In this document: positions 46,435 to 64,000 of the stretch, piece after piece | How positions within the stretch are numbered: position 1 is the first letter of the stretch | Layout of the letters: the number at the start of each line of letters is the position of its first letter | The notes under the pieces: model-generated | Told to the model about the DNA's origin: nothing | Seen by the model: the letters and a program-made list of their open reading frames with translations, nothing else | Database searches by the model: none | Origin: a virus | IMG/VR virus record: IMGVR_UViG_3300036886_000043 | Span: 1 to 64,000 of that record | DNA length: 64,000 nt | Reading direction: 5' to 3' (one strand) | Program-made: the position numbers and the translations under genes

Positions 46435-46439
46435 GAAAT

Positions 46440-46514
46440 CGCGGGTTGGTAGCGCAGCGTCATACGTCAGGCTCATACCCTGAAGATCCGGTGCAAATCC
46501 GGTACCCGCAACCA
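46440..46514 (+). tRNA. Initiator tRNA-fMet(CAU)
   Basis: The first base pair is a C1-A72 mismatch, the hallmark that allows formylation and initiator use. Acceptor then GCGGGT/ACCCGC, A73, CCA; loop CTCATAC. The anticodon stem has two, not three, G-C pairs next to the loop. Confidence 0.85.
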
Positions 46515-46515
46515 A

Positions 46516-46591
46516 GGTCACGTCGTCTAACTGGAAGGATACTTCCCTGTCTAGGAAGCTGGCGCGGGTTCGATTCCCGTCGTGATCGCCA
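46516..46591 (+). tRNA. tRNA-Asp(GUC)
   Basis: Acceptor GGTCACG/CGTGATC, G73, CCA; loop CTGTCTA; normal arms. Confidence 0.92.
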
Positions 46592-46597
46592 AGTTTA

Positions 46598-46676
46598 GCC
46601 GATGCACTCTGTACTGGATTCGGAGCACTCCCCTTCAAGGAGTTGGATGCGAGTTCGATTCTCGTCGTCGGCGCCA
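46598..46676 (+). tRNA. tRNA-Glu(UUC), C33
   Basis: Acceptor GCCGATG/CGTCGGC, G73, CCA; anticodon stem ACTCC/GGAGT with loop CCTTCAA (C33). Confidence 0.85.
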
Positions 46677-46684
46677 AGTTTTAC

Positions 46685-46761
46685 GGGGTCACCGTCTAAT
46701 TGGTCTGGACGCCAGATTCTCAATCTGGAAACTGTGAGTTCGATCCTCACTGGCCCTACCA
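46685..46761 (+). tRNA. tRNA-Glu(CUC)
   Basis: Acceptor GGGGTCA/TGGCCCT, A73, CCA; loop TTCTCAA. Confidence 0.85.
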
Positions 46762-46770
46762 GAAAATGAT

Positions 46771-46799
46771 TTGACAGAAATTGCGAACGGCGGTACAGT
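46771..46799 (+). promoter_or_regulatory. Sigma70-type promoter inside tRNA cluster
   Basis: TTGACA at 46771-46776, 17-nt spacer, TACAGT at 46794-46799. Drives a unit of about 130 nt that ends at the terminator 46905-46935. Confidence 0.85.
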
Positions 46800-46805
46800 A
46801 GAAAA

Positions 46806-46935
46806 CGAGATGAAAAACCGAGTCAATCACGGATTTACACCAGCGACGGCGCAACCGACGCAGGGTAATCCTATGTAGCGGCTCGTGGAGTTTGAAGCAA
46901 AGCGCCCACCGAGCCAATCAGCCGGTGGGTTTTTT
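46806..46935 (+). ncRNA. Short transcription unit 1 (sRNA or 22-codon mRNA)
   Basis: Bounded by a consensus promoter and a clean terminator, about 130 nt long. It contains ATG at 46810 opening a 22-codon frame (MKNRVNHGFTPATAQPTQGN...) without a good ribosome site. It could be a small RNA or a micro-gene. Confidence 0.55.
46905..46935 (+). terminator. Intrinsic terminator
   Basis: CCCACCG/CGGTGGG stem, 11-nt loop, then TTTTTT. It lies nine bases before tRNA-Asn. Confidence 0.88.
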
Positions 46936-46943
46936 GTTGATGT

Positions 46944-47019
46944 TCCAGCGTAGCAAAAAGGTAATGCGCCGCACTGTTAATGCGGAAATGTGCAGGTTCG
47001 AGTCCTGCCGCTGGAGCCA
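46944..47019 (+). tRNA. tRNA-Asn(GUU)
   Basis: Acceptor TCCAGCG/CGCTGGA, G73, CCA; loop CTGTTAA. Confidence 0.92.
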
Positions 47020-47028
47020 GTTTGAAGT

Positions 47029-47103
47029 TGCCCGTTCGTTCATGTGGCAGGACGGCTGACTCTGGATCAGCGGAGCGAGGTTCAAGTCCTCGACGGGCAG
47101 CCA
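47029..47103 (+). tRNA. tRNA-Gln(CUG)
   Basis: Acceptor TGCCCGT/ACGGGCA, G73, CCA; loop CTCTGGA. Confidence 0.92.
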
Positions 47104-47111
47104 AGTTTTAC

Positions 47112-47187
47112 AGGGAGATGGCCGAGCGGCTTAGGCGACAGCCTTTGGAACTGTCTCAGGTAGGTTCGACTCCTACTCTCCCTGCCA
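47112..47187 (+). tRNA. tRNA-Gln(UUG)
   Basis: Acceptor AGGGAGA/TCTCCCT, G73, CCA; loop CTTTGGA; one mismatch in the anticodon stem. Confidence 0.85.
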
Positions 47188-47188
47188 T

Positions 47189-47264
47189 GCGGACGTAGCT
47201 CAATTGGTAGAGCACAGCGTTGCCAATGCTGAGGTTGCCGGATCGTTGCCGGTCGTTCGCTCCA
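47189..47264 (+). tRNA. tRNA-Gly(GCC), odd T-loop
   Basis: Acceptor GCGGACG/CGTTCGC, U73, CCA; loop TTGCCAA. The T-loop is ATCGTTG instead of TTCRANY. Its CCA end is part of a junction palindrome. Confidence 0.75.
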
Positions 47265-47274
47265 AATTTTGGAG
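47260..47274 (+). repeat. 7-1-7 palindrome overlapping a tRNA 3' end
   Basis: CTCCAAATTTTGGAG: the left arm is the end of tRNA-Gly and the right arm holds GGAG for an ATG at 47281. Confidence 0.85.
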
Positions 47275-47280
47275 GTTGAC

Positions 47281-47442
47281 ATGCCGCACAGGTATCATTT
47301 CAATGCCGATCTCCGAGAAGTGTACAGAAGGCTGGCGGGACAATTTCGAGCACCGTTAGTTGAGTCGGCACAACACGACACTCGTAACGTCGAGGCTCCG
47401 GTTCGAGGCCGGGACGGTGCTCCAGAATTGGAAGGTGAGTGA
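47281..47442 (+). CDS. Small ORF running through tRNA-Thr(CGU)
   Basis: TTGGAGG lies seven bases before the ATG. The 53-codon frame reads MPHRYHFNADLREVYRRLAG and then passes in frame through the whole tRNA-Thr gene, ending as TGATG over the HNH start. It may be the stub of a gene cut by the tRNA, or a ribosome feeder for the HNH gene. Confidence 0.4.
   Translation: MPHRYHFNADLREVYRRLAGQFRAPLVESAQHDTRNVEAPVRGRDGAPELEGE
47350..47424 (+). tRNA. tRNA-Thr(CGU)
   Basis: Acceptor GCACCGT/ACGGTGC, U73, CCA; loop CTCGTAA; T-arm CCGG-TTCGAGG-CCGG. One anticodon-stem mismatch. Confidence 0.82.
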
Positions 47443-47978
47443 TGAATTTGATGCGGAAGCCGGTATTGCAGTTGAATGCAAGCTACGAGCCGCTTCGCAT
47501 CATCGCGGCAAGAAGGGCATTGACGCTCATAACCAAGGGCGTAGCCGTGGTGGAAGTGCCAACCAGCACAGTAGTCTATCCTGGCATCTACTTGCCCTCA
47601 GTGATTCGGTTGCGGACTTACCGGCATGTGCCTATTAGGATGCAGGTGATGAGCCGCAAGAACATTCTCCTTCGGGATGGCGGCCGCTGCATGTATTGCG
47701 GACAGAGGTCAAACGAATTGACGCTTGACCATGTGATTCCGCGTTCCCGTGGCGGATTGAATACGTGGGACAATCTTGTGGCTTGCTGCAAACGCGACAA
47801 TCACAAGAAGAACGACAGGACTCCAGAGGAAGCGGGAATGAACTTGATTCACAGGCCGCTTCCGCAAACGATCCACACGCCGCGGTTTGTTCTACGGTCT
47901 ATGGGTTTGGAAGTAAATGAGTGGAGCCCGTACTTGTGGGCCGACTCCGAAGGCGACAAGAAGTATGCGTTTAACTGA
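47442..47978 (+). CDS. HNH endonuclease in the tRNA cluster (2)
   Basis: 178 residues. N-terminal strand PVLQLNASYEPLRII, then RDGGRCMYCGQRSNELTLDH (partial), with LDHVIPRSRGGLNTWDNLVA and CCKRDNHKKNDRTPEEAGM, a complete HNH core with two CxxC zinc knuckles. It belongs to the class of free-standing HNH nucleases that often sit in phage and bacterial genomes outside introns. ATG overlaps the stop of the preceding small frame. tRNA-Thr(UGU) begins one base after its stop. Confidence 0.9.
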   Translation: MNLMRKPVLQLNASYEPLRIIAARRALTLITKGVAVVEVPTSTVVYPGIYLPSVIRLRTYRHVPIRMQVMSRKNILLRDGGRCMYCGQRSNELTLDHVIPRSRGGLNTWDNLVACCKRDNHKKNDRTPEEAGMNLIHRPLPQTIHTPRFVLRSMGLEVNEWSPYLWADSEGDKKYAFN

Positions 47979-48050
47979 GCCGGGTGAACATCGAATGTTG
48001 CGGGCGCTTGTATCGCTTGCTAGTGGGTTCGACTCCCACATCCGGCCCCA
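47979..48050 (+). tRNA. tRNA-Thr(UGU)
   Basis: Acceptor GCCGGGT/ATCCGGC, C73, CCA; anticodon stem with two G-T pairs, loop CTTGTAT; good T-arm. Confidence 0.75.
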
Positions 48051-48060
48051 ACAAGTTCAT

Positions 48061-48135
48061 GGGGAATATCGTTCAGCGATAGGACGCTAAGTTGTGGCCT
48101 TAGTCACCGCAGTTTGATTCTGCGTATTCCCCCCA
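48061..48135 (+). tRNA. tRNA-His(GUG)
   Basis: Extra 5' G(-1) opposite C73, the His identity element; acceptor GGGAATA/TATTCCC; loop TTGTGGC; encoded CCA. Confidence 0.9.
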
Positions 48136-48148
48136 AGTTTTAAGTAGT

Positions 48149-48223
48149 GGGCGTGTGGTGCTAATGGGAACACATCCGGCCTGCACCCGGAAGTTGAGAG
48201 TTCGATTCTCTCCATGTCCACCA
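48149..48223 (+). tRNA. tRNA-Ala(UGC), C33
   Basis: Acceptor GGGCGTG/CATGTCC keeps the G3-U70 pair that defines Ala tRNAs; A73, CCA; loop CCTGCAC (C33). Confidence 0.85.
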
Positions 48224-48229
48224 AGTTTT

Positions 48230-48305
48230 GCCGACTTAGCTGATGAGGTCATAGCGGTCGCCTGAAGAGCGATAGAAGCCCGCTCGATACGGGCAGTCGG
48301 CACCA
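48230..48305 (+). tRNA. tRNA-Phe(GAA)
   Basis: Acceptor GCCGACT/AGTCGGC, A73, CCA; loop CTGAAGA. Confidence 0.9.
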
Positions 48306-48306
48306 T

Positions 48307-48384
48307 CGGTGTGTAGCGTAGTCTGCTTAACGCGCTCCGTTCGGGACGGAGAGATCGCAGGTCGAAATCCTGCCACGCCGACCA
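48307..48384 (+). tRNA. tRNA-Pro(CGG)
   Basis: Acceptor CGGTGTG/CACGCCG, A73, CCA; loop TTCGGGA. Confidence 0.9.
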
Positions 48385-48390
48385 GTTTAC

Positions 48391-48464
48391 CGGGGTGTAG
48401 TGTAAAGGAAACATCCGTGGCCTGGGACCACGTGTTGGGCTTTCGAGATGCCCCACCCCGACCA
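48391..48464 (+). tRNA. tRNA-Pro(UGG), C33
   Basis: Acceptor CGGGGTG/CACCCCG, A73, CCA; loop CCTGGGA (C33). Confidence 0.85.
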
Positions 48465-48470
48465 ATTTAC

Positions 48471-48545
48471 GGCCCGTTCGTTCAATGGACAGGACTTCGG
48501 ATTACGAATCCGACAATCAGAGTTCGACTCTCTGGCGGGCTACCA
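48471..48545 (+). tRNA. tRNA-Arg(ACG)
   Basis: Acceptor GGCCCGT/GCGGGCT, A73, CCA; loop TTACGAA, as in bacterial Arg tRNAs modified to inosine. Confidence 0.88.
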
Positions 48546-48546
48546 C

Positions 48547-48575
48547 TTGCAAGAAAAGAAAAGTTGATGTACAGT
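48547..48575 (+). promoter_or_regulatory. Sigma70-type promoter inside tRNA cluster
   Basis: TTGCAA at 48547-48552, 17-nt spacer, TACAGT at 48570-48575; ATG at 48583 is 7 nt downstream. Confidence 0.75.
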
Positions 48576-48582
48576 GGAATTC

Positions 48583-48651
48583 ATGCAGATCAGGACCAAA
48601 CACGGAATAACCAGAATGACCAAGCGGGTCATTTGGGGGATCGTGTGTTGA
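48583..48651 (+). CDS. 22-codon leaderless micro-ORF
   Basis: MQIRTKHGITRMTKRVIWGI then VC and TGA; basic, with no Shine-Dalgarno but positioned so that transcription from 48547-48575 would begin at the ATG. Followed by a terminator, so it forms a complete tiny unit of about 120 nt between tRNAs. It could instead be a small RNA. Confidence 0.4.
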   Translation: MQIRTKHGITRMTKRVIWGIVC

Positions 48652-48678
48652 GGGTCTGAGCATTTTGGTACGCACAGA

Positions 48679-48702
48679 CCTTCGCTCAGGCGAGGGTTTT
48701 TT
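48679..48702 (+). terminator. Intrinsic terminator
   Basis: CCTTCGC/GCGAGGG stem with 4-nt loop, then TTTTTT. Confidence 0.85.
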
Positions 48703-48718
48703 ATTGCTCTTTGAAAAT

Positions 48719-48793
48719 AGGGGAGTGCTGGCGGCACAGCGGTTGGTCTCCAAAACCAACGTCACGGCGGTTCGAGTCCGCTCTCCCCTGCCA
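48719..48793 (+). tRNA. tRNA-Trp(CCA)
   Basis: Acceptor AGGGGAG/CTCCCCT, G73, CCA; loop CTCCAAA. Confidence 0.92.
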
Positions 48794-48798
48794 TTTTT

Positions 48799-48867
48799 GG
48801 CACGTACCCAAGGCGGGAAGCGATCCTCATAAGATCGTAAACTGGTTCGAGTCCAGGCGTGCTACCA
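48799..48867 (+). tRNA. tRNA-Met(CAU) or tRNA-Ile2
   Basis: Acceptor GGCACGT/GCGTGCT, A73, CCA; loop CTCATAA; only 69 nt with a short D-arm. CAU may be elongator Met or, after lysidine modification of C34, Ile (AUA). Confidence 0.8.
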
Positions 48868-48872
48868 GTTTT

Positions 48873-48966
48873 GGGCGATAGCACCGGCCGTGCGGCGGAG
48901 TCTTATAAACTCTGGAGAGCGCCAGATTAGCGCAACGGGAAGGATCGACACCTTCATCGCCTACCA
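48873..48966 (+). tRNA. tRNA-Ile(UAU), long variable arm
   Basis: Acceptor GGGCGAT/ATCGCCT, A73, CCA; anticodon stem GGAGT/ACTCT, loop CTTATAA. A variable arm of over 20 nt containing a GCGC/GCGC hairpin is unlike normal class I Ile tRNAs. T-loop ATCGACA. Confidence 0.65.
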
Positions 48967-48969
48967 TGT

Positions 48970-49044
48970 GGGTCGCAGATGTTTTTGGCGGCATACCCGG
49001 CTCTTACCCGGAATGGCGGGGTTCGACTCCCCGGCGACCCACCA
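48970..49044 (+). tRNA. tRNA-Lys(CUU)
   Basis: Acceptor GGGTCGC/GCGACCC, A73, CCA; loop CTCTTAC. Confidence 0.88.
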
Positions 49045-49053
49045 TCTGTTTTC

Positions 49054-49127
49054 GGACTGCGAGTGTGATGGTGCATAACGCCCTTTTAAGGCGTTTGGAT
49101 AGAGTTCGATTCTCTAGCGGTCCACCA
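49054..49127 (+). tRNA. tRNA-Lys(UUU)
   Basis: Acceptor GGACTGC/GCGGTCC, A73, CCA; loop CTTTTAA. Confidence 0.9.
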
Positions 49128-49128
49128 T

Positions 49129-49203
49129 GGCCCTATAGCTCAAGGGGATAGAGTGCGGTCTTCTAAGCCGTCGATCACCGTTCGACTCGGTGTAGGGCTC
49201 CCA
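49129..49203 (+). tRNA. tRNA-Arg(UCU)
   Basis: Acceptor GGCCCTA/TAGGGCT, C73, CCA; loop CTTCTAA. Confidence 0.88.
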
Positions 49204-49208
49204 GTTTT

Positions 49209-49285
49209 GCCGCTGTATCTCTCCGGTTTCCTAAACCGGCAAGAGTAGTTGGATGACGCCGGTTCGACTCCGGCCAGCGGCCCCA
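49209..49285 (+). tRNA. tRNA-Arg(CCU)-like, displaced D-arm
   Basis: Acceptor GCCGCTG/CAGCGGC, C73, CCA and a perfect T-arm, with anticodon arm CCGGT-TTCCTAA-ACCGG. Only seven bases separate acceptor and anticodon arm, so no D-hairpin can form there. A D-loop-like TAGTTGGATGA lies after the anticodon arm, and TCTCT/AGAG would pair around that arm. Confidence 0.6.
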
Positions 49286-49290
49286 GGTTT

Positions 49291-49368
49291 GCTGCCGTAT
49301 TCGGTTCTGGTTCCGAACCAGAGGGCCGTAGATGGAGAAGGCAGGTTCGAGTCCTGTCGGCAGCGCCA
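49291..49368 (+). tRNA. tRNA-Arg(CCG)-like, displaced D-arm
   Basis: Acceptor GCTGCCG/CGGCAGC, G73, CCA; anticodon arm TCTGG-TTCCGAA-CCAGA; good T-arm. Same odd plan as the preceding tRNA: no D-hairpin before the anticodon arm, TAGATGGAGAA after it, and TCGG/CCG flanking it. Confidence 0.6.
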
Positions 49369-49373
49369 GTTTA

Positions 49374-49449
49374 GCCGGGTTCGCCCAAAGGCTTAGGGCC
49401 GATGGTCTACACCCATCTGATAGGGGTTCGAGTCCTCTACCCGGCACCA
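49374..49449 (+). tRNA. tRNA-Val(UAC), C33
   Basis: Acceptor GCCGGGT/ACCCGGC, A73, CCA; loop TCTACAC (C33). Confidence 0.85.
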
Positions 49450-49454
49450 AGATT

Positions 49455-49528
49455 GTCGATGTAGCTCAGTGGTAGAGCACCGCAATGGTAATGCGGCGAC
49501 GAGGGTCCGATTCCCTCCTTCGGCTCCA
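49455..49528 (+). tRNA. tRNA-Thr(GGU)
   Basis: Acceptor GTCGATG/CTTCGGC with one mismatch, U73, CCA; loop ATGGTAA. Confidence 0.78.
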
Positions 49529-49532
49529 TTTT

Positions 49533-49607
49533 GCCGATGTAGCTCAATGGCAGAGCATTCGCTTGATAAGCGAAAGGTCAGTGGATCAGTACCACTCATC
49601 GGCACCA
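49533..49607 (+). tRNA. tRNA-Ile(GAU), odd T-loop
   Basis: Acceptor GCCGATG/CATCGGC, A73, CCA; loop TTGATAA; T-loop ATCAGTA. Confidence 0.85.
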
Positions 49608-49613
49608 AGTTGA

Positions 49614-49688
49614 GCGGGATTAGCCAAGTGGAAAGGCAATGGGCTTCCAACCCATTATGCGTCGGTTCAACCCCGACATCCCGCTCCA
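49614..49688 (+). tRNA. tRNA-Gly(UCC)
   Basis: Acceptor GCGGGAT/ATCCCGC, U73, CCA; loop CTTCCAA. Last tRNA of the array. Confidence 0.9.
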
Positions 49689-50860: not shown

Positions 50861-51505
50861 ATGGAAACGAAAATTCTCGAAGCGGTTGAAACGAGTAAGA
50901 TGTCAGTTTGTTCACCAGTCAAAGTATGGAAGTTCCCAGAACCGGGAAAGAACTACATCTTGTCGGCAGACCCCTGCTTGGGGACTGAAACAGATAGCTC
51001 CAATGCCGCAATCGAAGTAATTGATGCGGAGACTGGGGAACAGTGTGCAGAGTTTGCTCAGGTGGTGTCTCCTGAAAACCTAGCACCGATAATCTTCGAT
51101 TTGGCGAAGAGATACAATAATGCGGAAGTGGCGGTAGAGGTAAACAGTGTCGGCATGTTGACGAACAAACTCCTGATTCACAAGTTTAATTACGAAAACA
51201 TCTACCGCTTCAAACGGCTTGATCGCCTTCAAAATACCATGACGGACATCGTTGGATGGTGGACCGATTACAAGTCTAAGGCGCAAATGGAAGCCATATT
51301 CAGGGATTTTTTGGGGAATAATATAGGATTGATCCACAGTAAAAAATTGCTAAATGAGATTCTTTTCTACAACGAAGATAGTCCTAAACCGAATGATCGG
51401 TTTGCAGCCATGATGATTGCTCTGGCCGTTCGGGACGAGTTACTGAAGTCTAGGGCTTCTATTCTGAAGGCAGAAGAGAAGATGAGGAATAGGGGAGTGG
51501 ATTGA
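50861..51505 (+). CDS. Stand-alone terminase-type nuclease (TerL C-terminal paralogue)
   Basis: 214 residues; AGGAGGAAAT ribosome site. It aligns by eye with residues 425-600 of the TerL at 18576: SADPCLG (Asp37), VEVNSVGM-LTNKLL (Glu93), YENIYRFKRLDRLQNTMTDI (TerL has YEQIYRFKRMDRLKHFMTDI), GWWTDYKSK and NDRFAAMMIALA (Asp179). All RNase H-fold acidic residues are kept, while the ATPase domain is missing. Either a split-off domain with its own role (a resolvase or Holliday-junction-type nuclease) or a gene from another terminase. Confidence 0.88.
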   Translation: METKILEAVETSKMSVCSPVKVWKFPEPGKNYILSADPCLGTETDSSNAAIEVIDAETGEQCAEFAQVVSPENLAPIIFDLAKRYNNAEVAVEVNSVGMLTNKLLIHKFNYENIYRFKRLDRLQNTMTDIVGWWTDYKSKAQMEAIFRDFLGNNIGLIHSKKLLNEILFYNEDSPKPNDRFAAMMIALAVRDELLKSRASILKAEEKMRNRGVD

Positions 51506-53291: not shown

Positions 53292-53849
53292 TTGAGCAAG
53301 CCAACAGGCGAGGACCAGCAACTTCAGGCCAGTCAGGCGAATCTTGCCGACGTAATGAGTGCAACCGGCAAGCAATCGGCCCAAGAGGGTGCAACTCTCT
53401 TCAATCTCGGTCTGCCTGGATTAGAGAAGTCGGAATCGTATTATGGCAAACTGGCCAGCGGCGACCCGAACGCATTGGCAAGGGCAAACGCGCCAGCTAT
53501 CCAGTCGATTACCGGACAATCCGATCAACAACTCAAAAACATCATGCAGAACTCCCCGAGGGGGGGAGCGCGAGACCTTGCGGCCTCGGAAGCGGATTTG
53601 TCTAAGGGCGCTGGTATCAGCAACCTTACGACAGGCTCGTACACAAATGCCTTTCCGTCCCTCGCCAGCCTTGGAGGGCAGAACGTGGGGCAGGGGAATC
53701 AGGCTACGTCCACGGGCATTTCTGGTATGAATGCCGCGGCTAACCAGTACGGACAGTTGCAGCAGTTGAATAACGAGCAGAAGGCGACTCAGCTTGGTCT
53801 GTTCTCGTCCTTGGCCGGAGCCGGTGCATCGGCAGCGGGGGCGATGTGA
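53292..53849 (+). CDS. Ejection/internal virion protein candidate 1
   Basis: 185 residues, TTG start with GGGAGAG upstream. Ser/Gly/Gln/Ala-rich, helical and poorly charged, ending FSSLAGAGASAAGAM. Proteins of this make-up (Q-rich helices with GGARDLAASEADL) are typical of the ejection cluster of podoviruses, located after tail genes. Role inferred from composition and order. Confidence 0.6.
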   Translation: MSKPTGEDQQLQASQANLADVMSATGKQSAQEGATLFNLGLPGLEKSESYYGKLASGDPNALARANAPAIQSITGQSDQQLKNIMQNSPRGGARDLAASEADLSKGAGISNLTTGSYTNAFPSLASLGGQNVGQGNQATSTGISGMNAAANQYGQLQQLNNEQKATQLGLFSSLAGAGASAAGAM

Positions 53850-53850: not shown

Positions 53851-55911
53851 ATGCCAGTAAACGCCGATCAGTTCGCAGTGACCCCGTACACCTCGACGGT
53901 GCCTCTTCTCCAGATCCCGCCAGGGGCGATAGAGCAGCAGAGCCGACCGGCGCAGCCGCTACAGGGGCAATTTGGCCGGAAGGGGACCGGCGCTCTTGCA
54001 ATCGGGGACTCTCTACTCAAGGGGTTTATGCTCGGCCACGAACAGAAGGAGCAGAGGAAAAACGAGCAGGCCAAGGCGACAATCAACGCGGCCGATGCCG
54101 CAAGCGAAGCGGCCTACCGGGCATACCAGGATGCGCTTACGAAGGTTGGAGGCAAGCAGGACGATCCGGCGGCTCAGTCTGCGTATGAGGCGTATAAGGC
54201 TACCTTTAATGCCGGAAAGCAGGCCAAGGCGCAGTTTGTCATTCCAGAGAAGGGGCAGAAGGGGAAGAAGAGTTCTTCAGATAGTGTTGGCTCAACGGGA
54301 ACTGGCGGCAAAGGCGGCAAAGACAAGAAACAGGCCAGTGCGGGCTTCAACAATATCAGGGAATTCTTTGAGGCGAACCCTCATATCGTTCCTCAGATTG
54401 CATTGATGACTATGCAGCCAAAGCCGCAGGGGCTTGAGCCGCAGCGTCAAGTCCAAAGTTTGGAATTGGATACAGCCCAGCGCCAGAACAACGACTTGAA
54501 GCAAAAAGATTCTGACCGAAACATGATCGCCATGTACGGCAAGCTGACCCCAGAGGAGATAGCCAAACTACCGGCAGACGTACAAAAGCAGATCAATGAC
54601 CCGCAGAATGGTCTTAAAGTTGCTCAGTCCCGGTATGCGATGGAGGCTCCTCAGAAGGGCAAGGACCGCATCTGGACGAACGGAAAGGGAGATTTTAGCT
54701 CTCTTCCTGAAGGGGAAGCTCCTCCAGTTAATTCTGGATACTACCCGTATGAGAAGACTCCAGCAAACGGCCCGAAGGGCGAGGAAGCGTTCGTTGCCGA
54801 ATATGCCACGAAGAACAATATCAGTCCTGCTTCGATGGACCCGGCAACCCGGAAGTACCTGCACGATGTTTGGACGTATCGGAACCCGCAGACGACTTCA
54901 TCGGTAAGCGGGGCTACGGTTGATGCGCAAGGAAACCGCACCGCTACGAACAGGTCTACTCGTGGCTCTGCCGAGCCTAGACCGCCATCGGGTGTGGCTC
55001 CTGTTAGCGGGATGGGCATACAGCCTCCACCGGGGGCAGCAGCGGCCCCTACAGCCCAAGGAGTACCACCCACAGCGCCTCAAGGATCGACTCAGTACAC
55101 GGTTGGAGAGAAGCCGCAAGGAATTGTCGAGGAAGGCAACCTACCGATTTGGAATCGTCCTACGGTACAGAATTCCGATGGTAAGCACAGCACTGAATAT
55201 TCGACATCGATGGAGGAGGACGGTAAAGAGGTTCTTGTCCCAACGGTGGTCAACGGGAAGTTTCTTACTCCAGACGGAAAGAAACCGAAAGAAGGTTCTC
55301 CGGAAGAGAAAGCCATGTTCAAGTCAGCATGGCAGCACTATAAGGACACCGGAGAAAATCTCGGAAAGTTCAAGAGCGCAAAGGATGCCAATGCATACGC
55401 GGACACTTTGCATAATCGGGGATCGGCAAAGTCTGATTCAAGGGGAGGTATCCCCCATCCTCCAACAGTGAAGTCGGCCTCTAGCGGGCAAGGAATTACT
55501 CGTCCTCCGCAGGCTGGAAAGACCGCAAAGGCTGGAATGACACCGCCGCCAAGAGGCAAGGAAACGGCCCTCACGGCTTCAGTGACCCGGCAGGCAGTCA
55601 AGGCTCAGCAGGAAGGCTACCGGAAGGCGGAAGCACAGTACACGAAGGATATTGCCGACGCGGACAAGGCATTTGCGACGATTCAGGAGAATGCTTCCAA
55701 GAACACCGATCCGACGATTCTCCAAGCCGCCCAACAGGCCAAGGATGCAGCCTACGCCAGAGCAAAAACCTTTCTTGAAGGAGCAAAGGCCAGTGTTGCA
55801 GAGGAGTACGATGCTGCCGTAAAGTCGATTAGGGGGACGCCGGGAGGCCAATCTGGAGGAACGGCGGGAGGGCAGCAACCGAGCGGTAATTTACCTCCAG
55901 GGTGGCAATGA
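53851..55911 (+). CDS. Large ejection/internal virion protein candidate 2
   Basis: 686 residues, ATG two bases after the previous stop. Residues 60-140 and 560-650 are long charged helices; the middle is Pro/Gly/Gln-rich. Residues about 425-530 form a distinct module (PIWNRPTVQNSDGKHSTEYS, EVLVPTVVNGKFLTPDGKKP, FKSAKDANAYADTLHNRG) seen in phage internal and lysis-associated proteins. The overall design suits a protein packaged in the head and ejected. The stop is four bases before the giant gene. Confidence 0.65.
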   Translation: MPVNADQFAVTPYTSTVPLLQIPPGAIEQQSRPAQPLQGQFGRKGTGALAIGDSLLKGFMLGHEQKEQRKNEQAKATINAADAASEAAYRAYQDALTKVGGKQDDPAAQSAYEAYKATFNAGKQAKAQFVIPEKGQKGKKSSSDSVGSTGTGGKGGKDKKQASAGFNNIREFFEANPHIVPQIALMTMQPKPQGLEPQRQVQSLELDTAQRQNNDLKQKDSDRNMIAMYGKLTPEEIAKLPADVQKQINDPQNGLKVAQSRYAMEAPQKGKDRIWTNGKGDFSSLPEGEAPPVNSGYYPYEKTPANGPKGEEAFVAEYATKNNISPASMDPATRKYLHDVWTYRNPQTTSSVSGATVDAQGNRTATNRSTRGSAEPRPPSGVAPVSGMGIQPPPGAAAAPTAQGVPPTAPQGSTQYTVGEKPQGIVEEGNLPIWNRPTVQNSDGKHSTEYSTSMEEDGKEVLVPTVVNGKFLTPDGKKPKEGSPEEKAMFKSAWQHYKDTGENLGKFKSAKDANAYADTLHNRGSAKSDSRGGIPHPPTVKSASSGQGITRPPQAGKTAKAGMTPPPRGKETALTASVTRQAVKAQQEGYRKAEAQYTKDIADADKAFATIQENASKNTDPTILQAAQQAKDAAYARAKTFLEGAKASVAEEYDAAVKSIRGTPGGQSGGTAGGQQPSGNLPPGWQ

Positions 55912-55914: not shown

Positions 55915-58900
55915 ATGGCAGACCAACAGACTTGGAATCCAGTACCGGAACTCAAGCAGAAGTATCCGGGCTTGAAGGACTGGTCGGATGAGAAAATCTA
56001 CAATAATTTGTCGGACCCGAATAAGTTTCGGTCTGCTTTCCCGCAGTACGCCAATCTTGGCGACGATGTAATCAAGCGGAACATTGACCATCTGAAGCCC
56101 TCAATCCAACCACAGGCCGCGCCAGCGAATGTACAGGCTCCGGTTATGCCTTCAAAGGCGCCTGAGCAACGCCCACCGGATGAATTGAGGGCATGGACTC
56201 CCACTCCGCTTCAAGAAGCGTCTATCTGGTTTCGCAACACTCAGACCGGCAAGACTCTGGCGAATTCTTTTAACGATATTCGCCAAATGGCAAGCAGCGC
56301 GTGGACTAAAGCTCAAGAGCCGTTCGGCGGTGATCCTGAAGATGTTGAAAACTTGCGTAAGAAGCAAAACCAGTTCATTGATGACTATTTTCCAGAGAGT
56401 ATTGCGGGAAGCAAAAAAGTCGCCTCTGCTGTAAGAGGAGGAGCTAAAGGGGCGCTCCAGTTTGGAGAAGAGCTGACCTCTCCGGTCCAGATCGGATTGA
56501 TGGTCGGGACGTTTGGCGAGAGTGCTCTTGCTCGGACTGCGGCTTCGATGGGACTACCGAAGTTGGTCCCAGCGGCTCGGGTAATGGGAAAGCTAATTCA
56601 GGCTCAGTTCATCTCTCAGATGGTCGAAGGTGGATACACGAGCATTCGTGATTCCGTGAAGACCTATATTAGCGGGGATTGGGACACGGCGACACAGCAG
56701 GCGGTAGTCGGATTGGGTAGCCTACTGATGGCAAGGGCTGGCATCAGCCACGCTGAGGCTACAGAGAAAATACACGCCGACTTGGACAAGACCGCTGTCG
56801 AAAAGCACGGCCAGAAATTCAATAAGCTCTCTCCAGAAAATCAAGGTCTGGTTATCGAAGAAACTGTCAATCGTTCGCCAGAGTACAAGGCGATGATGGA
56901 GACGGTTGACGCCAAGAACGCCGAAGTCGCAGACAGCATTCAGAAAAAGCGGCAGATGCAAGTTGCACGCTACTCTGGAATCGCATGGGATCAGGCGTGG
57001 AATCCAGATGCCGCGCATCGGGCGGTAGATGCTCTCCACGCGGAACGCGCTGAAACTGCGAGGAAGGAACAAGTACAAAAAGTCGTCGGAACAATCAGGG
57101 CCAGGGTCAAGCAGCGCACCGACGAGATCAAAGCGGAAAACGAGGAACGTCTGGCCGCTGCCCGTGAGGGTCGCGAAGAGAAGCGCAAGGCCGCGGCTGA
57201 GGATCGTGAATCCGTACAGCAAACCGCAGAGGAAATCATCAAAGGCAGAGATGAGACCTTCGCTGGACGACAGGCAATCGGTGAAATCCCAACTGAAGAG
57301 GAAATGTCGCGCCCAGTCGAGGCCGCAGTTGACAACTCAGGCCACGTCAGCTACCCGGTCCAATACTGGGGAGAGGAAAACAGGTTCGGAGTCGGAACTG
57401 ACGGAGAGAGGCATTCGGTTTACCGTCAGACTCCACGCGGAGTCGAGTGGCTGGACCGCAGCGGCAATTTCACTGAAACTCCAGAGGCGCTTTACTTCAA
57501 TACCGACGACAAGACTTCAGATACAGTTGCAAGACTCTCTTCGCTGAAACTTGAGTCCGACGGCGTAGCAGCGCAGCCGGAAGCTACTGCCGAGCAAGTT
57601 AAGGACGCTGAGACGCTGGGCGAGATTCGCCGGCAGTTGATTGAAGGGGAGATCAACGCAGCCGAAGCGCAGAAACGCGCCGGCATCGCAGAGAAGACTA
57701 CTCTTCCAGACGTGTATGCGGCGGCTCGGGAAGGCCGTCTCAGTGGACCCTTCAGTGAGAAGTCTGCAACGGATTACGAACATGAAGTTGTGTTGGAACT
57801 ACTCAACAACGGCGCCAGCGAAGAAGAAGTCCAGGCGACACTTGAAAGCCTGCCAGCACTCGCAAGGGTGGACATCGAAAGAAACCTTCATCACGTCTAC
57901 CAGCCGGGAGACTATATCATCTCGAAGCGTGACGTGAAGTGGACACTTGACGCAAAAGGCTTGTTGCATCCTTCGGATGGTGGAATATCTGTACCTTTAA
58001 TGAAGCGGGGAACGTACTCGAATCAAGCTATGCAACTTGCGGCTTCGGGCAGGGTTGGGTATGGTACGAAGACCCGGCTGGAGCGGAGAGCCGACTTCTC
58101 AAGAAACCGCGACATCAAGAGGCAAATCGCAGTCCGGCAAGAAGAGTTTGACCGGGAGATGCGGGTTGCTCAACAGAACGCCGGCCTGGAAGCAATTCCA
58201 CAGGAAGGCGACGTTCACTACGAAGGGGAGCGTGAAGAACGCCGCAAGCAGTTCCTTGGCAGACCTCCGGTTCCCGAGGAAACTCACAAGGCAAGAGTAG
58301 AACGCAGGGCGGCTTACAAAGCCTCGAACGATCCAAACAACATCATCAACCAACTGGCAAAGCAGTTTGGAGTGACACCGGATGAAGTGATGCGGATTGG
58401 ACTGTCTGAGAGGACTCCGACCATCGAGGCAAAGGTGGCTTCGCTTGAAGTCGGGGACAGGGTTTCAGATCCATTCAGGCCGGACAGACCTTGGATTGTC
58501 GAGGAGAAGAATGGCCAAACCTACCTGCGGTCTGGACAGGCCAACCCGATTCCGTTTGACAGGCTGAATCCGAGCCCTCGCGTTTTCCAAATTTTGGAAA
58601 AAGGCGACATCACGCATGACCGCGACTGGACCGCAGAGGAGAAGGAAAAAGTCGCGTTTGAGAAACCGTACCTGGTTCACCAAAGATTCCTCGTAGATGG
58701 CGTTCGGGACCGGATGGAGGGCAAAGTCGTTGACCCAGAGCCGAAGACACAGGTGCAGGCCGAAACGCAGGCGGCCGCGGCAGAGAGCCGGAAAGCCGCA
58801 GCCCACTCAGTGGCAGTGGAAGCCGCGGAGAAGGCCACAAATCCAGAGATTGCCCATGACGACACTCCAGAGAAGGCAGTAGCCAAGGCAGAAGAACTCG

Positions 58901-61900
58901 CAAGGAAGGCCGAAGACGCGAAGAAGGTAGCGAAGGAAGCTGTAGCTCAATCCGCGGAAGCAAAGGCTAAAACTGGACCGAAGGGGAACTTCCCGCAGCG
59001 TTATGTCCCAAATTATCCTCTTGGGAAACCGACGACTATAGATCAAAATGGCCGTCAGTTAAAAGCGCACTATCGTCTTGTTCCAGTGGGGGCGGTAATC
59101 ATTTCGCATACTTGGAAGGGTGACACATTGGTGCGGACGCCGGAGAATGAATATCCGAAGGTCTTGCAGCCAAGGGAGCCAAACGAAAGAACGATTCTCC
59201 AAAGACGCATCGACGCGCAGCGGTTTTCTCGATCTGAAGATGGAAGAATTTCTGGTTACAACTTCGACAAGTACGCAAACAAGACGATTGATGCTATGTC
59301 GGGGCCGACAGTAGTTGAGCATGGTCTCCGGTCGGTAGCTGGTACGGGTAGATTCCAGCGGTTCCTGATGCACATTCAAGTTCTCAAAGAGATACCAGAC
59401 GTTGAAGAGAGGGAGGGCGCCCTTGCCGTCCTGAAGGAAAGGTTAGTTAAACTCGCCGAAGATTCAGGATTTAGGGTTTATCCAGAGGACGGACAATTTC
59501 ACATTGTTGTTAGAGAATTAGACGATCCAATTCAGACAATGGAAGAGGCAACCAAACTCGGACTTCTCTTTAACGAATCAGAAGCCGACAACATCAGCGA
59601 CTCACAGAAAGGATTGGTCTACAGCCGCAGTTTCGATCAGGATGTAATCAACAAAATCGGTCGCATGGTGGAAGGCTCTGAAGGCGGAATGAACGCGGCC
59701 ATGCGTGACAATCCTCTCTTCTTCGCGGAGGTTGTCGCGTCGAGATTCGATATTCCGGTATCGCAGGCGTCCGCATGGTTCGTGAAAGATAAGATGGGCA
59801 ACGACGTTCTTACTGAAGAGGGAGAACGTCTGTTCCGCAGAGCCATGAACGGGTACGTCATACAAGACCCGGACTTACTGGCCGGCGTGGAGAATGAGGT
59901 TGCTTACAGGGCTTTTGAGAATGCCATCGGGTACATCTCGCGGCTGAAGGCGTTCCCCGAGTTGGACCTTACCGGAAAGATCAAGGAGTCTCTCGAAGCG
60001 GCGCGGTTGACAGGGAGCGTCAATCGGGATTTGGCGGCAAGCGGCGATCCTTGGGATGCGGTCTATCAGCCGAGCCAGATTGACTTGGCTGGAATGGAAG
60101 AAGAACCGCCGCCGGAACCGGATCGAATGACGGAGACTTTATGGAGATCACTCAATGCCTCTAAGGTGGCGGCTCCCCGCGTATTCAGCGACCGGATGAA
60201 GCGGTGGATTTCAGATGAAGATACTCAGGCCGGTATGTTTGATTCAACAGAGAAGGCGCTGGAGAAACCAGTTGACAAGTTCAACAGGGTATTCGCTCCA
60301 GAGTTGAAGCAAGTCGCTCTACGGCGCAATAAGGGGACGCCCAGAGAGGGAACACCGGACGGATGGATGCTTTCTCAGACCGAGTACGATGCGGCTATGC
60401 AGGGCCGTGAAGTGAGCGACGAAGAGAGGGTAGAGGAGAAGCCGGAAGCGACTCCAAAATTCGAGCACATGGATCTCGTGACGGTAGTTCGTGGGCCTGG
60501 AGATTTGACCACGAACGTACCGGGATGGGTCTCCGATGTCCTTCCAGACGGAAGATTGAAAGTTGTCCCCGACAGTAAACTTCACGGCGGAATGATGACC
60601 GTTCCGGCTGAGTGGGTCGTTAAGAGGGAAGAGACTCCAAAATTTGGACCTCCGCCCAAGGCCGCATCCACCGTTGAAGTTGGGAAGCGTGTTACGTTCA
60701 CCCCGACAAACTTTAATCACAATGAAATAGTCGGCGTAGTGCGAGATACCATTACCAGTACGTCTGGAGCCAAAGGCTATCAAATTGTCGATGATGCAGG
60801 CATCGAGCATAGGGTGTGGGAGAAAGATGGGACAATCGGCGCAGAGACGAAGGCGGTAGATCAAAAAGCGATCAACGGTCTCAATGACGAAGAAAGAAGT
60901 TTGCGGAAGCGGCAGGCGGTTTTGGAGGCCCAAGTCAAGAAGCCTTCTGGAATGATTCCTCCAGCTATTACGTCCGAACTAAACGTCAAGCGTAGCGCCG
61001 AGTTACATGATATTCAGAAGCGCCTCGATGCGATTATCGATGAACGGCGAAAGTTAATGAAGGGCGGCATCAAACCCCCGCCCGAGGCCGCATCTCCAGC
61101 GGTTGTCGCAGACCGCAAGATAGCAGCAGAGAAGACAGAGCAGGGGTACATCACCCCTCACACCTTTAAGGAAATGTTGAATGCTTTCCCGGTAACCAAG
61201 GAGAATGCTGGAACTATATACGACACTGCTAAGGCTTTGGCGGCAGCGAGATGGGAGCGCCGCAAACCGGAGGGAGTGGAGCATAAAGACGCCCTAGCAT
61301 GGGTATTGAAAGAAATTGGCTTCAAGGGTATCGAAAAGGGAGACGACCCTCGTCATCGCGGGGAATATGACTTTGCGACCGGGGTTATGCGGCTAAACAA
61401 AGCCGCAGACAAAACGACGGCTATTCACGAGTTCATCCATGCAATTTCTCCCCTTCTCGACGAAGAGGAGTGGGAACAAATCGATACAATCAAGGTCAAT
61501 AAGGCTGCTTACAAGAGGGAATACGGAAAAGATTGGGCCTACACAGGTCAAAACGAAAGGATGGAAAAACTGGCTTATGGAAGCGAGAAATTCTTTCGTG
61601 ACGAAAATGCGGTGGACTTTCAGCCAGGATTTGAACTGCGGAAAGTCCTCAAAGACATCAAAGAAATGTTCATCTCCGTCTATCGTAAACTGCAAAGTGA
61701 TCCTCTATCTCCGTTCAAACTCAGCGACGACTTCAGGCAGTGGATGGCAGACAACCTCGGAATTACCGGCTTCGATGTCGCGGACGATTGGCGTGAGGAA
61801 GTTAAGAAGGCCAGAGCAGCAGAGAAAAAGATTGTTAGGCCGGAAGAGCAGCCGCATCCCGTGGTCACATTGGCAAGAGAGCTTGGAGGAACGGGACTAA

Positions 61901-64000
61901 GGGAATCAATCGATGGAAAAGTTGTCGATGAGGTTGGGGACCGCGTAGACCCGAAGAAGCCGGTTGTGGTAATCATGTTCCCATCCGAAGAGGAGGCGAC
62001 TTCGGCAGTGAGCCGAATTGCCGATGGCAAGGACAAGATTAACGGCGCCGAACTGATTCATGGGAAAGACGGAACCTGGGCGATGAAGATCAGCGCTGCG
62101 ACGAAGATTCCGCGGGGAAGTTTGTTCCAAGAGTTGCCAAAAAGTGAAATTATGCTGGCAAACAGACGGCCAAATGTCGTTGTTCGCCAACTGAAAGACA
62201 TCGATGGCAATGTACTTGGACAAATTGTTGAACCCTATGATGGGACAGAGGAAGGAGCAATTAAAGCTGCTCGTATAACATACGACAAAATGATTAGACT
62301 GCCACGTTACGGTATGTCGGGGATGAGTAGAGTTGCGGCTACAGATGCAGAAGGAACCCCGAAATGGATGATTTCTCCCTATAGCAGTTCCGCCTACAAA
62401 GAAAGCATAGCGGAAATTGGCACAGATGAAGCTCGTGAGATGTTCGATTTTCCAGAGAAGGTAGGATCGAGAACAAGACGTGTTGATACACGCGCTTTAC
62501 TGGCTAAGTGGGACGAAGAAGCAAAACAGGCAATAGAAGCGAAGAAAAAAGATTTTCTCGAAAAGACGGCGCAGCGTTCACCGATTGCTCCGCCTTCTGC
62601 TCATCCATCTGCGGATGTTATGACGATTGCCGAGCGTCATCCCGGCCTTCAACTCGAAGACCTTGAGAAGCGGCTGCGCGAAACACCATCGTACAAAACA
62701 TTTGAGCGCCGGTTGGTTCAAGGCCAGATTGACAGACTCAAGGCGAGAATCAGGAACGAAGCAGGGCTCAATGAACCGGAGCCGCAGCGTGATCCTGAAT
62801 TGCCAAAACAAGTATTGCAAGAGGTGAAAAATGCCCAAGCATCCGACAGAGGAAGAACAGCGAATGATGACGCTCCTGGGATTTCAAAGCCTCCGCGAGT
62901 TGGAGGAATTCCTAAACCTCCCCAGTTGGGGGTGTCAGGATATGCAGGAGCCAAGCGTGGAGGGCCAACTCCAAGAAGCAGCGTACCAAGAGCGCCAGTA
63001 AACCTTGAGAACGTCAAGCCGGTGACTCTGGAGCCGCTGGCAGGCGTCCGCGGTGAGCCGGTAGGAATGACCACTGGCGAGAAGTTCGACCAGAAGGCGT
63101 GGGTTGAGAGAAAGAAAAAAGGTGGTATAGCTGAGGGCACGCCGTATCCTACGTGGGCACTTGAGCATAAGACTGCATCGCAATTGATGAGCGGACAGCC
63201 AGTAGTTGTCCAGACCGTGATGAGTGCGTTGGAACAAGGAGATGGTGTTGTCGTCGTGACGCCTCCTGGCACGGGGAAATCGAAATATGTTGGTCCGGCT
63301 ATCATCAAGGAATACTTGCGTAAGAAACCAGACGCGAACATCCTAAATGTGTCGATGAATAAGCGTCTGCTTAAAGAAGCAAAGAAGAGTGCTGCAAACA
63401 ATTTCGGACTTGACTATGATCTTGATCCCCCAAGTGGTGAGCCGGGAATCTATTGTGTGAGTTTTATGGGGATGCTAAACAACGAGATTTACAAGAATAC
63501 GAAGTGGGATTTGGTGTTAGTAGACGAGAGCGGTGGGGCTCGAAGGGCGCATGACGAAAATACGCAGTGGGGTCCAATGTTGATGGATGTGGTTGCTAAC
63601 TCAGAGAAGGCTGTCTACATGAGCGCCACTCCCTTCCACTCCCCAAATGAATACTTTTATATCTACGATAAGCTGAATCTCGGGCCGAAGGGACAGTTCG
63701 ACAAGTGGATTCAGGAGAACTTCGCTCACGAGAAGATTGGAGACAAGATCGTTGCGCGTCTCGACCCCGGCAAACAGGCGAAGTTGAGAGAGCAGTTAAT
63801 CGCGGATGGCCGGTTTGTTTCTCAGGCAATCTCGTATGACGGCTATAACGCGCATTTTGGAGTAGTGCCGGTCACTGACCACATGAAGCGCGGCCTCGAC
63901 CGCATCAGAGAAGGGTTTGACAGGGCCAGGGATCAGTTTGTGCGGATGGGCAAGCAGGGGCTCGCAAGGAAAGCCGCAGCGTTTGAGGCGGTTTACACGA
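55915..64000 (+). CDS. Giant polyvalent protein (partial, runs off the window)
   Basis: Open from the ATG at 55915 to the window end: at least 2,695 codons without a stop. By position: hydrophobic/amphipathic N-terminal region 173-276; charged coiled-coil about 290-480; Ala/Glu-rich coil about 940-1020; a DdrB-like ParB-superfamily domain 1045-1370 (YRLVPVGAVIISH, YPKVLQPRE, GPTVVEHGLRSVAGTGR); SH3/KOW-like segments near 1517-1640; a zinc metallopeptidase with HEFIH at 1838-1842; and an SF2 helicase/ATPase from about 2420 with PPGTGKS (2450-2456), LVLVDES (2533-2539) and SATP (2570-2573). This domain mix defines the polyvalent proteins known from phages and conjugative elements, thought to be injected with DNA. 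The gene follows the ejection proteins. Further domains must lie beyond the edge. Confidence 0.9.
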   Translation, partial: MADQQTWNPVPELKQKYPGLKDWSDEKIYNNLSDPNKFRSAFPQYANLGDDVIKRNIDHLKPSIQPQAAPANVQAPVMPSKAPEQRPPDELRAWTPTPLQEASIWFRNTQTGKTLANSFNDIRQMASSAWTKAQEPFGGDPEDVENLRKKQNQFIDDYFPESIAGSKKVASAVRGGAKGALQFGEELTSPVQIGLMVGTFGESALARTAASMGLPKLVPAARVMGKLIQAQFISQMVEGGYTSIRDSVKTYISGDWDTATQQAVVGLGSLLMARAGISHAEATEKIHADLDKTAVEKHGQKFNKLSPENQGLVIEETVNRSPEYKAMMETVDAKNAEVADSIQKKRQMQVARYSGIAWDQAWNPDAAHRAVDALHAERAETARKEQVQKVVGTIRARVKQRTDEIKAENEERLAAAREGREEKRKAAAEDRESVQQTAEEIIKGRDETFAGRQAIGEIPTEEEMSRPVEAAVDNSGHVSYPVQYWGEENRFGVGTDGERHSVYRQTPRGVEWLDRSGNFTETPEALYFNTDDKTSDTVARLSSLKLESDGVAAQPEATAEQVKDAETLGEIRRQLIEGEINAAEAQKRAGIAEKTTLPDVYAAAREGRLSGPFSEKSATDYEHEVVLELLNNGASEEEVQATLESLPALARVDIERNLHHVYQPGDYIISKRDVKWTLDAKGLLHPSDGGISVPLMKRGTYSNQAMQLAASGRVGYGTKTRLERRADFSRNRDIKRQIAVRQEEFDREMRVAQQNAGLEAIPQEGDVHYEGEREERRKQFLGRPPVPEETHKARVERRAAYKASNDPNNIINQLAKQFGVTPDEVMRIGLSERTPTIEAKVASLEVGDRVSDPFRPDRPWIVEEKNGQTYLRSGQANPIPFDRLNPSPRVFQILEKGDITHDRDWTAEEKEKVAFEKPYLVHQRFLVDGVRDRMEGKVVDPEPKTQVQAETQAAAAESRKAAAHSVAVEAAEKATNPEIAHDDTPEKAVAKAEELARKAEDAKKVAKEAVAQSAEAKAKTGPKGNFPQRYVPNYPLGKPTTIDQNGRQLKAHYRLVPVGAVIISHTWKGDTLVRTPENEYPKVLQPREPNERTILQRRIDAQRFSRSEDGRISGYNFDKYANKTIDAMSGPTVVEHGLRSVAGTGRFQRFLMHIQVLKEIPDVEEREGALAVLKERLVKLAEDSGFRVYPEDGQFHIVVRELDDPIQTMEEATKLGLLFNESEADNISDSQKGLVYSRSFDQDVINKIGRMVEGSEGGMNAAMRDNPLFFAEVVASRFDIPVSQASAWFVKDKMGNDVLTEEGERLFRRAMNGYVIQDPDLLAGVENEVAYRAFENAIGYISRLKAFPELDLTGKIKESLEAARLTGSVNRDLAASGDPWDAVYQPSQIDLAGMEEEPPPEPDRMTETLWRSLNASKVAAPRVFSDRMKRWISDEDTQAGMFDSTEKALEKPVDKFNRVFAPELKQVALRRNKGTPREGTPDGWMLSQTEYDAAMQGREVSDEERVEEKPEATPKFEHMDLVTVVRGPGDLTTNVPGWVSDVLPDGRLKVVPDSKLHGGMMTVPAEWVVKREETPKFGPPPKAASTVEVGKRVTFTPTNFNHNEIVGVVRDTITSTSGAKGYQIVDDAGIEHRVWEKDGTIGAETKAVDQKAINGLNDEERSLRKRQAVLEAQVKKPSGMIPPAITSELNVKRSAELHDIQKRLDAIIDERRKLMKGGIKPPPEAASPAVVADRKIAAEKTEQGYITPHTFKEMLNAFPVTKENAGTIYDTAKALAAARWERRKPEGVEHKDALAWVLKEIGFKGIEKGDDPRHRGEYDFATGVMRLNKAADKTTAIHEFIHAISPLLDEEEWEQIDTIKVNKAAYKREYGKDWAYTGQNERMEKLAYGSEKFFRDENAVDFQPGFELRKVLKDIKEMFISVYRKLQSDPLSPFKLSDDFRQWMADNLGITGFDVADDWREEVKKARAAEKKIVRPEEQPHPVVTLARELGGTGLRESIDGKVVDEVGDRVDPKKPVVVIMFPSEEEATSAVSRIADGKDKINGAELIHGKDGTWAMKISAATKIPRGSLFQELPKSEIMLANRRPNVVVRQLKDIDGNVLGQIVEPYDGTEEGAIKAARITYDKMIRLPRYGMSGMSRVAATDAEGTPKWMISPYSSSAYKESIAEIGTDEAREMFDFPEKVGSRTRRVDTRALLAKWDEEAKQAIEAKKKDFLEKTAQRSPIAPPSAHPSADVMTIAERHPGLQLEDLEKRLRETPSYKTFERRLVQGQIDRLKARIRNEAGLNEPEPQRDPELPKQVLQEVKNAQASDRGRTANDDAPGISKPPRVGGIPKPPQLGVSGYAGAKRGGPTPRSSVPRAPVNLENVKPVTLEPLAGVRGEPVGMTTGEKFDQKAWVERKKKGGIAEGTPYPTWALEHKTASQLMSGQPVVVQTVMSALEQGDGVVVVTPPGTGKSKYVGPAIIKEYLRKKPDANILNVSMNKRLLKEAKKSAANNFGLDYDLDPPSGEPGIYCVSFMGMLNNEIYKNTKWDLVLVDESGGARRAHDENTQWGPMLMDVVANSEKAVYMSATPFHSPNEYFYIYDKLNLGPKGQFDKWIQENFAHEKIGDKIVARLDPGKQAKLREQLIADGRFVSQAISYDGYNAHFGVVPVTDHMKRGLDRIREGFDRARDQFVRMGKQGLARKAAAFEAVYT

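What the first reader, a model, noticed from the sequence alone, without database searches (positions are those of the whole stretch)
55915..64000. Giant polyvalent protein, still open after 2,695 codons
The sequence shows one uninterrupted frame joining a DdrB-like ParB-superfamily domain, an HEFIH metallopeptidase and an SF2 helicase, directly after two ejection-type genes. Established knowledge: such domain mixtures are the polyvalent proteins of phages and conjugative elements, believed to act on entry against host defences. Inference: this is a head-packaged, ejected protein that proteolyses host factors and handles incoming DNA. The hydrophobic region at residues 173-276 may help membrane crossing.
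Basis: partly seen in the sequence, partly recalled or inferred. Interest (0 to 1): 0.9.

Follow-up and report, generated by a model that had tools for sequence, protein, structure and literature searches.

The report
Giant polyvalent phage protein, divergent member
A virus of bacteria encodes one huge 3,810-residue protein that joins a DNA-nuclease-like domain, a probable protein-cutting domain and a DNA-motor domain, probably carried in the virus particle and injected with the DNA to protect it on entry; the kind of protein is already known, but this one is very distant from any described example.

Summary
The frame opening at 55915 is still open at the window edge after 2,695 codons. It closes at base 67347 of the 97,230-bp virus record, giving 3,810 aa. 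Uninterrupted homologues of 3,527, 3,614 and 3,022 aa in other viral contigs argue against a sequencing artefact.

Domain calls. The DdrB-like ParB domain (residues 1036-1347) is supported by profile-profile comparison with P1 DdrB relatives (91.4%, E 9e-7; other segments under 1%), though the Pfam model misses it. The helicase is confirmed and is Strawberry-notch-type (99.9%, E 2e-31). The metallopeptidase is probable only: HExxH is invariant in three homologues, but no profile or fold match is significant.

There is no transmembrane segment at 173-276.

Gene order (185 aa, 686 aa, giant) resembles Bcep22-like podoviruses, whose giant was found in virions (PMC9144972).

Best reading: a divergent phage polyvalent protein, probably packaged and ejected to protect entering DNA, with the zincin most likely self-processing it. 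DdrB plus Strawberry-notch fusion already exists in Bacteroides phage BS-TP4.

The parts
55915..64000 (+). Giant ORF, residues 1-2695 of 3,810 (continues to record position 67347)
   Evidence: uninterrupted homologues
55915..59019 (+). N-terminal region, residues 1-1035, no known domain; most conserved at about 676-900 (47-51% identity to G004 in two 75-residue blocks)
56431..56742 (+). Least polar stretch, residues 173-276; mean hydropathy +0.26, best 19-residue mean 0.95: no transmembrane segment
59020..59955 (+). DdrB-like ParB domain plus following helical region, residues 1036-1347 (LQPRE at 1084-1088, GTGR at 1143-1146; the relative L005 reads QPR...GNGR)
   Evidence: hhalign 91.4%, E 9.2e-7 against P1 DdrB and ten relatives; missed by the Pfam model
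60448..61119 (+). Variable linker, residues 1512-1735, with two G-[IM]-PP-type motifs
   Evidence: gaps and low identity in relatives; motifs
61132..61884 (+). Probable zincin-like metallopeptidase, residues 1740-1990; HEFIH at 61426-61440, candidate third ligands E1881/E1884
   Evidence: HE..H and E..E invariant in three homologues; beta strands, HExxH helix, Glu helix in a low-confidence model
62140..62631 (+). Segment of about 164 residues (2076-2239) absent from both full-length relatives
62878..62922 (+). Linker GISKPPRVGGIPKPP (residues 2322-2336), a repeat motif shared with the upstream protein
63100..64000 (+). Strawberry-notch-type SF2 helicase, residues 2396-2990 (first lobe within the window; motif VI beyond 64000)
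53851..55911 (+). Upstream 686-aa partner gene, four G-I/M-x-x-PP motifs, ends just before the giant's ATG
   Evidence: homologues L005 (522 aa) and G004 (560 aa)
53292..53849 (+). Upstream 185-aa Gly/Ala/Gln-rich protein, same position as the 164-aa gene of L005
52646..53257 (+). GNAT-like acetyltransferase gene; Bcep22-like phages also carry an acyltransferase gene upstream of the giant

Best explanation
A divergent phage polyvalent protein. Most likely the 3,810-aa chain is made late, packaged into the capsid with its 686-aa and 185-aa neighbours, and ejected ahead of or with the DNA. In the cell the Strawberry-notch-type motor would translocate along incoming duplex DNA and clear or remodel bound host proteins such as restriction complexes, while the DdrB-like ParB domain acts on DNA or nucleotide. 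The zincin-like domain most likely cuts the chain, perhaps at proline-rich linkers, to free these units. Shown: the complete ORF, the DdrB-like domain and the Strawberry-notch-type helicase by profile comparison, conserved HExxH, conserved gene order. Inferred: packaging, ejection, self-cleavage and the antirestriction role.
For: DdrB-like domain: 91.4%, E 9e-7, control segments 0.1-0.8%. Helicase: AAA_34 over its cut-off in the G004 homologue (38 against 27 bits); profile match to Strawberry-notch helicases 99.9%, E 1.9e-31, 464 columns across both lobes. HExxH and downstream Glu invariant at 34% overall identity. Gene order 185 aa, 686 aa, giant kept in L005 and comparable to BcepIL02 gp68, gp69, gp70; the JC1 giant was identified in CsCl-purified virions with 51 unique peptides (PMC9144972). 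DdrB-ParB and Strawberry-notch helicase occur in one polypeptide in Bacteroides phage BS-TP4 and in L063, and in adjacent genes in L061. DdrB-ParB is described as restricted to phage-type polyvalent proteins near virion genes (PMC5512222).
Against: No virion proteomics for this phage or its homologues. No methyltransferase was found in the chain by Pfam or by the NPPY-type motif, so it is not a DarB-type modifier. The peptidase has no significant family or fold match. The C-terminal 800 residues match nothing known, including LPD38. L058 lacks HExxH, so proteolysis is not essential to every member.
Confidence: 0.68

Rival explanations
1. The zincin-like domain is an effector that cleaves host proteins after entry, rather than a processing enzyme for the giant itself.
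For: HExxH and neighbouring Glu residues are conserved; PMC5512222 allows other roles for such peptidases when they are delivered full length, as in N4 virion RNA polymerase.
Against: No evidence on substrates; the same paper proposes self-processing as a main role; repeated proline-rich linkers in the giant and its neighbour are plausible internal cleavage sites.
Confidence: 0.15
2. The giant is mainly an inner-core or ejection-conduit structural protein, like large podoviral internal virion proteins, and its enzymatic domains are secondary.
For: Position after two small late genes; long N-terminal and helical C-terminal regions without recognised enzymatic domains; L058 keeps size and position while lacking HExxH and the DdrB-type domain.
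Against: The helicase is the best conserved segment of the family (45-56% identity to G004 over 2551-3000), which points to catalysis under selection.
Confidence: 0.25
3. It is not in the virion at all but acts late inside the cell, for example in DNA packaging or host takeover.
For: No direct virion evidence; free-standing Strawberry-notch helicases exist in other viral contigs (L060, L065).
Against: Gene order comparable with that of a proven virion giant (PMC9144972); DdrB-ParB is described from phage-type, virion-linked polyvalent proteins (PMC5512222).
Confidence: 0.12
4. The open frame is an assembly error or a fusion of several genes.
For: Extreme length; mosaic conservation (segment 2076-2239 absent in relatives).
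Against: Independent assemblies keep one frame across the same domains.
Confidence: 0.01

Closest known systems
Bcep22-like podovirus giant (BcepIL02 gp70, 4,667 aa; JC1 gp69, 4,515 aa; 'DarB-like antirestriction')
   Same: Giant late-gene protein directly after small and 500-aa-class virion genes; SF2 helicase; an HExxH in gp70; found in JC1 virions (PMC9144972)
   Different: Has SLT, an Eco57I-type methyltransferase match, LPD3 and LPD38 and no ddrB-ParB hit; helicase profiles do not match (0.3%); no whole-length match
Bacteroides phage BS-TP4 gp3 (5,391 aa, annotated hypothetical)
   Same: DdrB-ParB and Strawberry-notch helicase in one polypeptide
   Different: Also has an InPase domain and LPD38; no tblastn match to this protein at E 1e-3
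Phage P1 DdrB (995 aa)
   Same: DdrB-like ParB domain aligned over about 270 columns; P1 DdrB also has an HExxH near its C terminus; a processed form is in P1 heads (PMC5512222)
   Different: No helicase; the peptidase regions do not align by profile
Metagenomic contigs G004 and L005/L006
   Same: True full-length homologues, 34% and 68% identity, same order of domains
   Different: Lack residues 2076-2239; linker 1512-1735 and C terminus diverged
Metagenomic contig L058 (3,022 aa)
   Same: Helicase 34% identical over 2396-2970, similar place after a 480-aa gene
   Different: No HExxH and no DdrB-ParB match; a ParB-like GHHRYEGA stretch by eye

Membership tests
Phage polyvalent proteins (Iyer et al. 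2017) | Several biochemically unrelated domains in one polypeptide | tested here: met
   DdrB-like ParB and Strawberry-notch helicase in one frame; zincin probable
Phage polyvalent proteins (Iyer et al. 2017) | Encoded in a phage near late virion genes | tested here: met
   Virus record with terminase 18564-20792 and portal 21480-23345, and 41248-44589 related to a Tunturi phage virion structural protein
Phage polyvalent proteins (Iyer et al. 2017) | Packaged and delivered with the DNA | not testable with these tools
   Only by analogy with JC1 gp69 (PMC9144972)
DdrB-like ParB domain (PF18763) | Match to the family profile | tested here: inconclusive
   Pfam model: no match at E 10; profile-profile with P1 DdrB family 91.4%, E 9e-7
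DdrB-like ParB domain (PF18763) | Conserved QPR and GNGR with active-site arginine | tested here: met
   QPR and G.GR in the window protein, QPR and GNGR in L005; G004 keeps only part (QYR, GNTR)
Strawberry-notch-type SF2 helicase (AAA_34 / Helicase_C_4) | Profile match over both helicase lobes | tested here: met
   99.9%, E 1.9e-31; AAA_34 over cut-off in G004, but no hit for the window protein itself
[quoted passage not shown]
   No model of that segment was made
Zincin-like metallopeptidase of polyvalent proteins | HExxH and a downstream zinc ligand | tested here: met
   H1838, E1839, H1842, E1881 and E1884 invariant in three homologues; absent in L058
Zincin-like metallopeptidase of polyvalent proteins | Profile or fold match to a known zincin | tested here: inconclusive
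   Profile 2%; model pLDDT 53; IrrE/PprI and selecase appear among PDB hits and a polyvalent metallopeptidase among viral hits, none at E 0.001 or better
DarB-type methyltransferase-helicase (Bcep22/P1 DarB) | Adenine methyltransferase fused to the helicase | tested here: not met
   No methyltransferase family and no [NDS]PP[YFW] motif
LPD38 C-terminal domain (PF18857) | Profile match at the C terminus | tested here: not met
   No hit at E 10 in G000, G001 or G004; profile-profile 0.3%

The most novel reading that the evidence does not exclude
The repeated G-[I/M]-x-x-PP motif, found in linkers of the giant, as an array in its upstream partner, and close to the C-terminal ..PP[KR] end of the giants, is a shared signal: either the cleavage site of the giant's own zincin or a docking tag that co-packages the two proteins. 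It would make a self-processing, co-ejected two-protein system built on a DdrB plus Strawberry-notch core without a methyltransferase.
Probability: 0.15. Interest if true: 0.65.

Novelty: new member of a known kind. Interest (0 to 1): 0.42.

Why it matters
It adds a lineage of giant polyvalent proteins that tblastn finds in none of 50,697 phage records and that single-sequence Pfam, PHROGs and NCBIfam searches do not identify. Together with BS-TP4, L063 and L061 it shows the DdrB-like ParB domain recurrently paired with a Strawberry-notch motor, an alternative to the well-known methyltransferase-helicase pairing, which suggests entry protection by translocation or DNA cleavage rather than by modification. 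That can be tested.

Tried and rejected
Single-sequence Pfam, PHROGs, NCBIfam, PADLOC and PDB searches of the giant: only a sub-threshold ResIII match and a weak terminase match to the helicase. tblastn of both halves against 50,697 phages: nothing at E 1e-3; relaxed searches gave weak helicase matches and noise. PF18763 on the record: no match. Whole-length profile comparison with BcepIL02 gp70: nothing. LPD38 at the C terminus, suggested by eye, was rejected. C-terminal structure prediction was too poor to use (pLDDT 41), so no fold search was run. Peptidase model pLDDT 53: matches read as suggestive only. Peptidase profile against the BcepIL02-type HExxH domain: 2%, only the HExxH helix aligned. 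Genome-contig scan with the helicase: no relative. Transmembrane role for 173-276 rejected on hydropathy.

Full report
Observation. The frame at 55915 runs to the window edge with 2,695 codons and no stop. The window is part of a 97,230-bp virus record. Reading past 64000, the frame stops at record position 67347, giving a 3,810-residue protein. The stop probability per codon at this composition is about 0.04, so chance is excluded. Pattern searches of viral contigs returned two identically laid-out loci, L005 and L006, with a 3,527-aa homologue at 68% identity. A terminase search led to a third relative, G004, with a 3,614-aa homologue at 34% identity. A search with the three-sequence helicase profile found a fourth, L058, 3,022 aa, homologous over the helicase. 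All are uninterrupted, so the length is real.

Domains. Single-sequence library searches see almost nothing, because the protein is very divergent: tblastn against 50,697 phage records finds no match. With relatives in hand the picture clears. Residues 1036-1347 match a profile of P1 DdrB and ten relatives with 91.4% probability and E 9e-7, aligned from the LQPR motif through GNGR and the following helical region; four other segments of the same protein score below 1% in the same test. The Pfam ddrB-ParB model alone does not reach it, so membership is by profile comparison and motifs, not by the curated cut-off. The helicase is of the Strawberry-notch group: AAA_34 passes its cut-off in the G004 homologue, and profile comparison with four Strawberry-notch helicases aligns 464 columns across both lobes at 99.9% and E 1.9e-31. 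The profile does not match the Bcep22-type helicase.

Peptidase. HEFIH at 1838-1842 is the only HExxH in the chain. H, E, H and the glutamates 1881 and 1884 are invariant in the three full-length homologues even though overall identity falls to 34%. A structure model from three sequences is of low confidence (pLDDT 53) but shows three strands, the HExxH helix and a glutamate-bearing helix, the order expected of a zincin. Fold searches gave no match at E 0.001 or better; IrrE/PprI and selecase appear among the PDB hits, and a polyvalent metallopeptidase, an IrrE protein and SprT-like proteins among the viral hits. I call it a probable zincin. The L058 homologue lacks it.

Rest of the chain. Residues 1-1035 and about 3000-3810 match nothing known. 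The C terminus is predicted helical, but the model is too poor to use, and it is not LPD38 by profile. The stretch 173-276 is among the least polar of the protein but has no transmembrane-grade segment. Residues 2076-2239 are absent in both full-length relatives, and linker 1512-1735 is highly variable.

Context. Upstream lie a 185-aa and a 686-aa gene and, before them, an acetyltransferase gene. BcepIL02 has an acyltransferase gene upstream, then 234-aa and 530-aa virion-associated proteins directly before its 4,667-aa giant. In the relative JC1 the corresponding giant was found in CsCl-purified virions (PMC9144972). [quoted passage not shown]). Packaging of this protein is therefore likely but inferred.

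Recurrence. The DdrB plus Strawberry-notch combination is not unique. Bacteroides phage BS-TP4 gp3 has both, with InPase and LPD38. L063 has both in one 2,612-aa frame. L061 has them in adjacent genes. No methyltransferase was found in the window's giant, so the DarB mechanism of modifying incoming DNA does not apply. A translocase that strips or remodels host complexes on entering DNA, assisted by a ParB-type nuclease or nucleotide-binding domain, is the most likely role; this step is inference.

Extra finding. A short motif, G-[I/M]-x-x-PP, occurs four times in the giant (0.5 expected from shuffles) and four times in the upstream protein (0.17 expected), is conserved as an array in the upstream proteins of L005 and G004, and resembles the C-terminal ends of the giants (LEAPPK, GIKPPPR, KIQPPPK). 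Proline-rich linkers could give this by common composition, so it is a lead, not a result.

Verdict. A genuine, very divergent member of a known kind.

Noticed in passing
window 45210-49688: Cluster of 28 tRNA genes covering most amino acids, with small ORFs between them.
   Followed up: no
window 53851-55911, 60448-61119, 62878-62922; L005; L033: G-[I/M]-x-x-PP motif repeated in the giant's linkers and in the upstream partner protein, well above shuffle expectation and conserved as an array in relatives.
   Followed up: partly
window 50861-51505: A 214-aa protein matching the same PHROGs as part of the large terminase (phrog_38407, phrog_24361), possibly a separate terminase-nuclease-like gene.
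   Followed up: no
record 82673-88882 (L004:4674-10883): A second very long ORF, 2,069 aa, with only weak fibronectin-III-like matches near its N terminus.
   Followed up: no
window 41248-44589: 1,113-aa protein with 23% identity to a virion structural protein of Tunturiibacter phages, the only phage records matched, perhaps hinting at an acidobacterial host.
   Followed up: partly
L061:3567-12997; L063:269-8107: Metagenomic viral contigs where DdrB-ParB and Strawberry-notch helicase are in adjacent genes (with GNAT and LPD1) or fused in the opposite order (with a TMEM65 match).
   Followed up: partly
L058:6092-15160: Homologous giant in which the DdrB-type domain seems replaced by another ParB-like stretch (GHHRYEGA, by eye) and the HExxH is missing.
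   Followed up: partly
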